64,000 bases of DNA from positions 1-64,000 of the IMG/VR virus record IMGVR_UViG_3300005613_000021. One strand, written 5' to 3'. Below the pieces are notes generated by a model. It searched no databases and was not told the DNA's origin. It worked only from the letters and a program-made list of their open reading frames with translations. This stretch comes from a virus. Position numbers and translations under genes: made by a program. Below are positions 577-3,594 of the stretch, one piece after another; position 1 is the stretch's first letter, and each line of letters starts with the position of its first letter.

Positions 577-585
577 TTTCTATCC

Positions 586-614
586 ATCATACCATACTTA
601 TCGGCGTTTTGCAA
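586..614 (-). promoter_or_regulatory. Promoter of tRNA-CAT, leftward
   Basis: TTGCAA (609-614) and TATGAT (586-591) are 17 bp apart; an alternative pair is TTGAGA (615-620) with TATGGT (591-596), 18 bp apart. The spacer carries GCCGATAAG, the GNCGAT box. Transcription would start within a few bases of the tRNA 5' end. Confidence 0.6.
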
Positions 615-632
615 TCTCAAACTTGAGAAAAA

Positions 633-678
633 CGTAAGTTGTTGATATCAAAGCAGTTACGCCCATCCCGGCCGGCCG
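633..678. repeat. Composite palindrome-dyad element, copy 1
   Basis: Dyad CGTAAGT-N15-AGTTACG (633-661, one mismatch), then exactly 7 nt, then the palindrome CGGCCGGCCG (669-678). It lies between tRNA-Glu and the tRNA-CAT promoter. The orientation is opposite to copy 2, so the pair brackets tRNA-Glu and the structured RNA. Confidence 0.75.
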
Positions 679-698
679 TCAAAATTAGTGTACAAATA

Positions 699-770
699 TG
701 ACCCTATGGAGAATCGAACTCCAGTTTTTGCCGTGAAAGGGCAACGTCCTAGCCGCTAGACGATAGGGCC
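699..770 (-). tRNA. tRNA-Glu (TTC)
   Basis: The minus strand gives acceptor GGCCCTA with TAGGGTC, anticodon stem TTGCC/GGCAA with loop CTTTCAC (anticodon TTC), T-stem TGGAG/CTCCA with loop TTCGATT, and discriminator A. No CCA is encoded. Only 8 nt separate its 5' end from the closing helix of the structured RNA upstream, so RNase P cleavage of the tRNA would also define that RNA's 3' end. The shared promoter is at 1056-1083. Confidence 0.95.
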
Positions 771-778
771 TTTGCAAT

Positions 779-1052
779 GAGACAAACCAGCGAATCTTTT
801 ACGCCCCGATTCTATTGCCCAACAGCCTACCCTTTGACGGAACTGTGGAAACCGCCCACGGAAATCCTTCCTAGGCATAGTTCATGACTCATGCCGTCTG
901 GCTCTTGGGAACGGTTACTGGTTGTATCGAACCCTCTGTGGCCTCGCACCACGCATAGGTATCTTACACGATTGACTAAGGCATGTCAATATGGTGGTCG
1001 ATAGCCTTGTCCTATGCCGCCTAATCGCTTGGGGGTAAGGTTGTGTTGTCTC
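779..1052 (-). ncRNA. Candidate structured non-coding RNA, about 274 nt, co-transcribed with tRNA-Glu
   Basis: No reading frame of note crosses this stretch, but the minus strand folds extensively. A closing helix joins the two ends (GAGACAA 1052-1046 with TTGTCTC 785-779). A second helix pairs TTAC-CCCC (1038-1031) with GGGG-C-GTAA (807-799). A long arm pairs CCCAA/TTGGG, AGCC/GGCT and GACGG/CCGTC (909-894 with 840-818), 14 bp in three segments. Another arm pairs GCATAGG (1017-1011) with CCTATGC (959-953); inside it, hairpin TTGAC/GTCAA has a loop whose GCCTT (982-978) can pair with AAGGC (1008-1004), a possible pseudoknot. The promoter at 1056-1083 would start transcription almost exactly at the closing helix. 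It does not show the conserved sequences of tmRNA or RNase P RNA. Large phage RNAs next to tRNAs (GOLLD, ROOL) are known, but those are two to three times longer. Class and function are unknown. Confidence 0.72.
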
Positions 1053-1055
1053 CTA

Positions 1056-1083
1056 AGCATACCCTATATATCGTCATTGTCAA
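1056..1083 (-). promoter_or_regulatory. Promoter of the structured RNA and tRNA-Glu
   Basis: TTGACA (1078-1083) and TATGCT (1056-1061) lie 16 bp apart on the minus strand. The spacer contains GACGATATATAGGG with the GNCGAT box. The predicted start falls at about 1050. Confidence 0.7.
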
Positions 1084-1704: not shown

Positions 1705-2295
1705 ATGAATAAAACATCACAGCCTAAAATAGACAATAATACTAAATGGGCAAAAAATAATTTAGATAAAGTACGTCAATACAAGCAAAAATATAAACAT
1801 AAACAAAAAAGATTATCTAGGGAATATATTAAAACTATTAAAGAGCAATCTGGTTGTAAGCTTTGTGGTAATAAAAATATTAACTGTCTAGATTTTCATC
1901 ATCGCCCAAATACAATCAAAAAAAATACAGTATGCAATCTGGTTCGACATGGGTATTCATTAAATATTATTAGAGCAGAAATAAATAAATGTGATATAAT
2001 ATGCTCAAATTGCCACAGAACACAACACTATACTGGTAAATATATGCGTAATAAAAAGGGTTTAAAAATATATAACATTAAATCAAATAGTAAATGTTTA
2101 TATTGTGATTGTAATAAGGTAGAATGTTTAGATTTTCATCATACTGAAGATAATAAAGAAAAAGGGATAGGTGCTATGGTAAGAGATAAAAATATATCTA
2201 TGGAGCAGTTAGAAACAGAGATAAAAAAATGTATCATACTCTGCTCTAACTGCCATAGAACATTTCATGCTAATGACAAGGAAAAAGAACATTAG
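1705..2295 (+). CDS. Free-standing endonuclease with two HNH domains in tandem
   Basis: A 196-residue, Lys-rich protein with two copies of one HNH zinc-finger nuclease unit. Copy 1 has C51-x2-C54, DFHH at 63-66 and CSNCHR at 100-105. Copy 2 has the same residues exactly 80 positions later: C131-x2-C134, HH145-146, CSNCHR 180-185. Such enzymes nick or cut DNA and often behave as homing endonucleases in phages. It is the only rightward gene in the left arm, is clearly more AT-rich than its neighbours, and its end overlaps the convergent gene at 2270-2983 by 26 bp, all consistent with late insertion. The RBS is GGAGG at 10 nt. Confidence 0.85.
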   Translation: MNKTSQPKIDNNTKWAKNNLDKVRQYKQKYKHKQKRLSREYIKTIKEQSGCKLCGNKNINCLDFHHRPNTIKKNTVCNLVRHGYSLNIIRAEINKCDIICSNCHRTQHYTGKYMRNKKGLKIYNIKSNSKCLYCDCNKVECLDFHHTEDNKEKGIGAMVRDKNISMEQLETEIKKCIILCSNCHRTFHANDKEKEH

Positions 2296-2983: not shown

Positions 2984-3007
2984 TGTTTTTCTCCGTTGTG
3001 TCTCTCA

Positions 3008-3035
3008 AGTATACTCTATTATCGTCCAATGTCAA
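3008..3035 (-). promoter_or_regulatory. Sigma70-type promoter, leftward
   Basis: TTGACA (3030-3035) and TATACT (3008-3013), 16 bp apart, with GACGATAATAGAG in the spacer. It drives the Gp88-like gene. Confidence 0.75.
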
Positions 3036-3114
3036 CCAAAAACTTTGGAAAAAATAAAAATAATTTTTGGCACAGAATTTGCTACGAGTGCTTATACCCC
3101 CCAGAATGGTGGCC

Positions 3115-3160
3115 CGGCCGGCCGTTTTGCTCGTAAGTCCTTTAGATGCAACAACTTACG
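3115..3160. repeat. Composite palindrome-dyad element, copy 3
   Basis: Palindrome CGGCCGGCCG (3115-3124), exactly 7 nt, then the perfect dyad CGTAAGT-N15-ACTTACG (3132-3160). The dyad covers the end of the 23-residue gene at 3142-3213. Confidence 0.8.
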
Positions 3161-3495: not shown

Positions 3496-3502
3496 ATCTG
3501 GC

Positions 3503-3531
3503 ATTATACCCTATATCGGCTTTTAGGTCAA
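3503..3531 (-). promoter_or_regulatory. Sigma70-type promoter, leftward
   Basis: TTGACC (3526-3531) and TATAAT (3503-3508), 17 bp apart, with GCCGATATAGGG in the spacer. The composite repeat copy 4 begins 17 bp upstream. Confidence 0.78.
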
Positions 3532-3548
3532 GTCTGCTTTAGAGAAAA

Positions 3549-3594
3549 CGTAAGTAGTTGCAGCGTAAGCACTTACACTCAGGTCGGCCGGCCG
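3549..3594. repeat. Composite palindrome-dyad element, copy 4
   Basis: Dyad CGTAAGT-N15-ACTTACA (3549-3577), exactly 7 nt, then CGGCCGGCCG (3585-3594). It is inverted relative to copy 3, and the pair brackets two small genes. Between it and the gene end at 3671 the minus strand is hairpin-rich (for example CTCG-TCGTGT-CGAG), possibly a terminator. Confidence 0.78.

What the first reader, a model, noticed from the sequence alone, without database searches (positions are those of the whole stretch)
779..1052. Structured RNA of unknown class just upstream of tRNA-Glu
Seen directly: a promoter whose start point coincides with a helix joining both ends of a 274-nt non-coding stretch; a second long-range helix (TTAC-CCCC with GGGG-C-GTAA); a three-part arm of 14 bp; and an arm with a possible pseudoknot. 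The RNA ends 8 nt before tRNA-Glu, so tRNA processing would also mature it. GOLLD and ROOL show that phages carry large RNAs beside tRNAs, but the size and helices here do not match them as far as I can tell. This is my best candidate for an undescribed element.
Basis: partly seen in the sequence, partly recalled or inferred. Interest (0 to 1): 0.85.

Follow-up and report, generated by a model that had tools for sequence, protein, structure and literature searches.

The report
Two anticodon-less tRNA-shaped phage RNAs
Next to a transfer-RNA gene this virus of bacteria makes two small folded RNAs, one of them shared by some fifty related viruses and absent from the RNA family database, that look like transfer RNAs whose message-reading arm was replaced or lost, and that may be decoys for the host cell.

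Summary
The stretch is a real, undescribed structured-RNA locus, but not one 274-nt RNA. The minus strand holds two RNAs, 6 nt apart, after a phage-type promoter and before tRNA-Glu.

RNA B (923-785) belongs to a new family. A model finds it in about 50 related IMG/VR phage contigs; Rfam has no match. 96% of base-pair cells are kept and 21 of 31 pairs show two-sided changes (95%, 20 pairs in 29 copies found without using the RNA sequence). Its ends form a 7-bp stem stacked on a 5-bp arm, the acceptor/T-arm geometry of tRNA.

RNA X (1042-930) has no sequence relatives. It stands where relatives carry RNA A and shares A's layout: closing stem, pseudoknot domain instead of an anticodon arm, T-arm. 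A's fold, pseudoknot included, is supported by covariation, and its model's next-best matches are tRNAs.

Relatives carry arrays of such RNAs drawn from about 16 types; one (T) is a plain tRNA body with the anticodon arm replaced.

Closest known: T4 species 1/2 RNAs. Processing by tRNA enzymes and a decoy role are inferred.

The parts
1056..1083 (-). Promoter: TTGACA (1083-1078), CGATA in the spacer, TATGCT (1061-1056); start expected near 1050
   Evidence: same type occurs 607 times in 1.25 Mb of relatives, none in the mono-shuffled control
930..1042 (-). RNA X, class alpha: closing stem AACCTT (1042-1037) with AGGGTT (935-930), pseudoknot domain where a tRNA has its anticodon arm, T-arm
   Evidence: fits descriptor (about 5e-6 per nt per strand in shuffles; descriptor set after seeing A, Y and X); same place and spacing as RNA A before B; no sequence relative; RNA A model gives only 2.1 bits
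953..1017 (-). X stem P2 GCATAGG (1017-1011) with CCTATGC (959-953); inner stem TATC (1003-1000) with GATA (963-960)
   Evidence: also in the minimum-energy fold
971..1008 (-). X pseudoknot AAGGC (1008-1004) with GCCTT (982-978) in the loop of hairpin ATTGAC..GTCAAT (990-971)
   Evidence: equivalent pseudoknot of RNA A supported by covariation (pair 38-129 C-G 16 / G-C 13)
938..952 (-). X T-arm GTGG-TGCGAGG-CCAC, 7-nt UGCRANN loop
   Evidence: sequence; same loop type in RNAs A (one subtype), Y and I
785..923 (-). RNA B, new family present in about 50 phage contigs
   Evidence: 143.9 bits, E 2e-43
785..923 (-). B closing stem P1, 7 bp: AACCAGT (923-917) with GCTGGTT (791-785)
   Evidence: 7th pair U-G in 46 of 52 rows, C-G in 1
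850..916 (-). B stem P2 AACCGTT (916-910) with GGCGGTT (856-850), enclosing variable hairpin P3 (895-874) and GGAA/TTCC (871-860)
   Evidence: P2 98.5% and P3 92.1% of cells paired; all 6 P3 pairs with two-sided changes
819..848 (-). B variable, optional hairpin P4
   Evidence: absent in L009, L019, L056, L098
792..812 (-). B 3' hairpin P5 GAATC/GATTC, loop GGGGCGTAAAA, contiguous with P1
   Evidence: 100% of cells paired, all 5 pairs with two-sided changes; loop GGNNCGUAAA conserved
699..770 (-). tRNA-Glu (UUC), 14 nt after B, same strand, no promoter found between

Best explanation
One transcript starting near 1050 carries RNA X, RNA B and tRNA-Glu. X and B are separate folded RNAs whose ends imitate the acceptor stem and T-arm of a tRNA, while the anticodon arm is replaced by a pseudoknot domain (X) or a branched domain (B). 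The host's tRNA-processing enzymes (RNase P at 5' ends, tRNase Z or exonucleases at 3' ends) would cut them out like tRNAs and leave stable RNAs that cannot decode. Most likely they are tRNA mimics: decoys or inhibitors that occupy host factors recognising the upper half of tRNA, such as tRNA-targeting defence nucleases, EF-Tu or ribosome-rescue factors. Shown: B as a separate conserved unit and its fold, the fold of X's counterpart A, the tRNA-like layout, shared strand and promoter. Inferred: X's fold, processing, stability, decoy role. I put about 0.9 on the structural account of B, 0.75 on X being class alpha, 0.65 on processing by tRNA enzymes and 0.3 on the decoy role.
For: B: (96.3% of cells paired against 85.3% shuffled; covariation 0.302 against 0.132; slid versions at most 0.074); holds in 29 distinct copies found through a neighbouring protein or in the window; one copy per phage in 17 of the 18 records with a match, two in the other. 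tRNA geometry: 7+5 bp with no unpaired base between on the 3' strand. A: (44 pairs with pseudoknot, 95.1% paired, covariation 0.282 against 0.128). The A model's best matches outside its family are tRNA genes, aligned acceptor to closing stem and T-arm to T-arm. RNA T scores above Rfam's tRNA threshold in L014 (29.9) and L028 (32.5) although its anticodon arm is replaced. A-B spacing is 6-7 nt in 14 loci; X-B is 5 nt by the same measure (sequence). B precedes a tRNA also in L073, 7 nt apart. T4 tRNAs in precursors with spacers under 5 nt are RNase P substrates (PMC11143913). Mosaic content of the arrays is what an arms race would give.
Against: No transcript data. X has no sequence relative, so its fold rests on analogy and on a descriptor chosen after the event. 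B's 3' loop (11 nt) is not a T-loop, and B has no D-arm. No host factor, defence system or binding assay points to decoys in particular. A2 was fitted to the structure, although the unfitted alignment A1 shows the same changes. E-values of the A model against tRNAs are weak (0.04-0.21; 0.7-3.4).
Confidence: 0.45

Rival explanations
1. The RNAs are tmRNA-like or act on trans-translation: tRNA-like upper half with a pseudoknot domain, binding SmpB, EF-Tu or the ribosome.
For: RNA A and X share the order closing stem, small D-like hairpin, P2, pseudoknot, T-arm with the tRNA-like part of tmRNA (layout of tmRNA from own knowledge).
Against: No Rfam tmRNA match, no tmRNA by ARAGORN, RNAs too short for a tag frame plus four pseudoknots, no SmpB in 22 related records.
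Confidence: 0.12
2. They work with RNA-binding proteins as scaffolds or regulators, like bacterial Y RNAs with Ro60, or as antisense or sponge RNAs for mRNAs, rather than as tRNA decoys.
For: Strongly conserved loops such as GGNNCGUAAA in B look like binding sites; Y RNAs also mimic tRNA (own knowledge).
Against: No TROVE/Ro60 protein in 22 related records, no Rfam Y RNA match; B's conserved loop was not tested for targets.
Confidence: 0.2
3. They are passive: leader or spacer RNAs that help fold, protect or process the following tRNA.
For: B lies 14 nt before tRNA-Glu here and 7 nt before tRNA-Gln in L073.
Against: In most relatives the arrays are not followed by a tRNA but by a new promoter or small genes.
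Confidence: 0.1
4. One reading: one 274-nt RNA held together by long-range helices.
For: The minimum-energy fold joins the ends, and the 7-bp Watson-Crick match is expected by chance in only 1% of shuffles.
Against: With G-U pairs the chance is 11%; no counterpart in 12 relatives; B occurs without X in about 50 phages; the long-range helix TTACCCCC/GGGGCGTAA would use B's conserved P5 loop.
Confidence: 0.06
5. Chance folding without function.
For: Folding energy is unremarkable (z -1.2).
Against: Covariation of B and of A; constant spacing.
Confidence: 0.02

Closest known systems
Phage T4 species 1 and species 2 RNAs (rnaC, rnaD)
   Same: Small stable phage RNAs beside tRNA genes, 139 and 119 nt, 6 nt apart; species 1 ends in a T-arm (CCGGG-UUCGAAU-CCCGG) directly before its 3' closing strand and has long helices instead of an anticodon arm.
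   Different: No match to the models of A or B; T4 has two such RNAs, the relatives here carry longer arrays drawn from about 16 types; A and X have a pseudoknot, and X a UGCRANN T-loop.
tmRNA, tRNA-like part
   Same: Acceptor and T-arm joined to a long helix with a pseudoknot in place of the anticodon arm (RNAs A and X; tmRNA layout from own knowledge).
   Different: About 110-160 nt, no tag reading frame shown, no Rfam or ARAGORN hit, no SmpB gene in the phages.
tRNA
   Same: Acceptor/T-arm stack; RNA T passes Rfam's tRNA threshold in L014 and L028; the A model's nearest outside matches are tRNAs.
   Different: No anticodon arm, so no decoding; A and X lack the canonical UUCRA T-loop; B has an 11-nt loop and no D-arm.
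GOLLD and ROOL
   Same: Large phage-borne RNAs near tRNAs (own knowledge).
   Different: Several hundred nt (own knowledge); no Rfam match here.
Bacterial Y RNAs (YrlA)
   Same: Closing stem of both ends with tRNA mimicry (own knowledge).
   Different: No Rfam match and no Ro60/TROVE gene in 22 related records.

Membership tests
RNA B family defined here (model R1) | P1-P5 stack, P2/P3, loop GGNNCGUAAA | tested here: met
   143.9 bits, E 2e-43, full length; note that the window copy was among the 44 sequences that built the model
Class alpha (layout of RNA A) | Closing stem, P2, pseudoknot in hairpin loop, T-arm in that order | tested here: met
   X fits the descriptor; descriptor post hoc; 30 real hits against 11-12 per shuffle in 1.09 Mb
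RNA A family (model R2) | Sequence and structure score | tested here: not met
   X scores 2.1 bits, E 0.28 in 290 nt; X is not filed as a member of family A
T4 species 1 / species 2 RNA | Homology in sequence and structure | tested here: not met
   no match of R1 or R2 up to E 10
T4 species 1 / species 2 RNA | Small non-decoding RNA beside phage tRNA genes with a tRNA-like end | tested here: met
T4 species 1 / species 2 RNA | Stable RNA made during infection | not testable with these tools
   no expression data
tmRNA | Rfam or ARAGORN match | tested here: not met
tRNA | Cloverleaf with anticodon arm | tested here: not met
   only tRNA-Glu itself is found in 560-1200
GOLLD / ROOL | Rfam model match | tested here: not met
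Bacterial Y RNA | Rfam match | tested here: not met
Bacterial Y RNA | Ro60 (TROVE) partner in the genome | tested here: not met
   0 of 22 records (several may be fragments); positive control rang

The most novel reading that the evidence does not exclude
A lineage of large phages keeps a fast-changing island of tRNA-shaped decoy RNAs, assembled from about 16 interchangeable families in tandem and cut out by the host's own tRNA enzymes, as an RNA counter-defence arsenal against host systems that attack or sense tRNA.
Probability: 0.28. Interest if true: 0.92.

Novelty: new variant of a known kind. Interest (0 to 1): 0.72.

Why it matters
T4's two tRNA-like stable RNAs have, to my knowledge, had no established function for half a century. 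Here is a lineage in which such RNAs are numerous, modular and supported by covariation, with one intermediate (T) that is still a recognisable tRNA without its anticodon arm. That gives a set of sequences with which one can test what phages use non-decoding tRNA look-alikes for, and RNA families that can be added to Rfam so that phage annotation stops skipping them.

Tried and rejected
Protein coding: only 40-41 codon frames, and relatives of B vary from 94 to 176 nt with indels that are not multiples of three. Energy z-score as evidence: weak for the window RNAs. Relatives of X: blastn over all loci, an exact 18-mer scan (one chance hit in an apparently protein-coding, GC-rich, unrelated contig, L180), and scans with two neighbouring proteins gave none. 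Weak B matches in L116/L117 lie in what reads as a protein gene and were discarded. A search of reference phages found only tRNA matches for the window stretch and nothing for the T-A-B array. Ro60 and SmpB hypotheses were tested and not supported. Literature searches found no description; the library lacks most subscription journals. Host: not established; the only bacterial-genome hit is a 4.6-kb contig in a Lake Lanier MAG, probably a phage fragment.

Full report
What is in the window. The window is the first 64 kb of a 96,536-base IMG/VR virus contig. On the minus strand, between a promoter at 1083-1056 and tRNA-Glu at 770-699, lies a stretch without a credible reading frame. Rfam 15 has no match in 560-1200 except the tRNA, even at E 10. 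The energy z-score of the stretch is only -1.2, so folding energy alone would not have shown anything.

Relatives. A protein encoded 1.2 kb upstream (2983-2270, Pfam GP88/DUF7227) has 54 relatives in viral contigs, many on contigs of 100-243 kb with many tRNA genes. blastn with the RNA found its 3' half, but never its 5' half, in about 35 of these loci. Two exact-pattern scans added further contigs. The contigs with B appear to belong to one phage lineage. Host and biome are not established; one hit lies in a Lake Lanier MAG.

RNA B. 44 copies were aligned (A1) and a covariance model was built (R1). It finds B in about 50 contigs, one copy per phage except L030, which has two, one of them only 94 nt (22 records searched whole, 18 with a match). 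Base pairs: 96.3% of cells paired against 85.3% in shuffles; 21 of 31 pairs with changes on both sides; covariation 0.302 against 0.132; sliding one strand by a single base drops it to at most 0.074. Because the pattern scans select for sequence, I recounted with the 29 distinct copies found through the protein or in the window: 95.4% paired and 20 pairs with two-sided changes, against a shuffle maximum of 85.7% and 14. The unfitted alignment shows two-sided changes in P5 and P3 too. B has a 7-bp closing stem (AACCAGU/GCUGGUU) followed without a gap by a 5-bp hairpin, together the 12-bp stack of acceptor and T-arm; that hairpin's loop, GGNNCGUAAA, is among the most conserved parts.

RNA A, the usual neighbour. 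In many relatives another RNA, A, stands directly before B; the spacing is 6-7 nt in 14 loci, and other RNAs sit between them elsewhere. 29 copies give a fold with a pseudoknot: 95.1% of 1267 cells paired, 19 of 44 pairs with two-sided changes, covariation 0.282 against 0.128, slid at most 0.074; the pseudoknot pair 38-129 is C-G in 16 and G-C in 13. Order of elements: closing stem, small D-like hairpin, P2, pseudoknot, inner hairpins, T-arm, closing stem. The model of A (R2), searched over 1.09 Mb, found after its own family five tRNA genes among the next seven matches, aligned acceptor to closing stem and T-arm to T-arm.

RNA X, the window's 5' half. X lies where A lies, 6 nt before B's stem. 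It fits the same layout: closing AACCTT/AGGGTT, P2 GCATAGG/CCTATGC, pseudoknot AAGGC/GCCTT in the loop of ATTGAC..GTCAAT, inner TATC/GATA, T-arm GTGG-TGCGAGG-CCAC. The descriptor matches about 11-12 times per 1.09 Mb (both strands) in shuffles, about 0.002 expected in a 290-nt strand; real loci gave 30 hits. It was written after seeing A, X and a third RNA, Y (L009, L007), so this is support, not proof. X has no sequence relative and is not a member of family A.

Arrays. At least 16 RNA types were noted in these loci, mostly in tandem with short linkers such as AATACAA: B in 52 of 79 loci by blastn, A in about 40, H in 34, J in 18, D in 15, T in 9, others in fewer. T has the acceptor, D-arm and T-arm of a tRNA with covarying pairs, and three hairpins where the anticodon arm should be; Rfam's tRNA model accepts it in L014 and L028. 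This shows that tRNA bodies with a replaced anticodon arm exist in these arrays. None of the other types matched Rfam in the loci scanned, and a T-A-B array found nothing among reference phages.

Mechanism. Shown: separate folded units, tRNA-like ends, same strand as the tRNA with no promoter found between. Inferred: excision by RNase P and 3' tRNA enzymes, as for closely spaced T4 tRNA precursors (PMC11143913), and persistence as stable RNAs. The function that fits best is occupation of host factors that see the upper half of tRNA, most likely in counter-defence; lineage-specific, mosaic content would fit an arms race, but no experiment shows it. Rivals are given with their tests.

Comparison. 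Phage T4 makes two small stable RNAs at the end of its tRNA cluster, 139 and 119 nt, 6 nt apart. Species 1 ends in a canonical T-arm directly before its closing strand. They are the nearest known kind, but R1 and R2 do not match them. tmRNA, Y RNA, GOLLD and ROOL memberships were tested and not met. I therefore rate this a new variant of a known kind: new families, new arrangement, known general idea.

Limits. No expression data, no host, X unsupported by its own relatives, R-scape not available, IMG/VR contigs often fragments, contigs very near the window possibly withheld by the tool.

Noticed in passing
L026 8069-8151, L036 7929-8011, L005 6373-6454 and 31 more loci: RNA 'H', about 82 nt, in 34 of 79 loci, often standing alone after its own promoter; very conserved core AATGATATCAAA..CGAGTATGGC, partial covariation; no Rfam match in the loci scanned.
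   Followed up: partly
L014 13040-13143, L028 6733-6833 and 7 more loci: RNA 'T': tRNA acceptor, D-arm and T-arm with the anticodon arm replaced by three hairpins; Rfam tRNA 29.9 and 32.5 bits.
   Followed up: partly
window 585-678, 1081-1172, 3007-3142, 3502-3594; also in relatives: Repeated intergenic element: GGCCGGCC, ACGTAAGTNCTTAT and AT-rich stretches before CGATA promoters. Perhaps a phage regulatory element.
   Followed up: no
window 1083, 3035, 5458 (minus) and 607 sites in relatives: Phage-wide promoter type TTGACA-N(1-5)-CGATA-N-TAnnnT; a fixed CGATA in the spacer is unusual for sigma-70 promoters.
   Followed up: partly
L036 9448-9510: Pistol ribozyme (55.7 bits) 180 nt before tRNA-Arg.
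   Followed up: no
L014 8619-8800: Likely group I intron (47.4 bits, just below Rfam's 50) after tRNA-Thr.
   Followed up: no
L030 6219-6461: Two B RNAs in tandem, one reduced to 94 nt without P4: a candidate minimal core.
   Followed up: no
L010 5077-5238, L031 5690-5827, L034 5872-6032: The inner part of B's P2 arm is swapped for unrelated hairpins while P1, P2 and P5 stay: domain exchange inside one RNA family.
   Followed up: no
window 1705-2295 (+): HNH endonuclease gene on the opposite strand inside the minus-strand cluster, perhaps a homing insertion.
   Followed up: no
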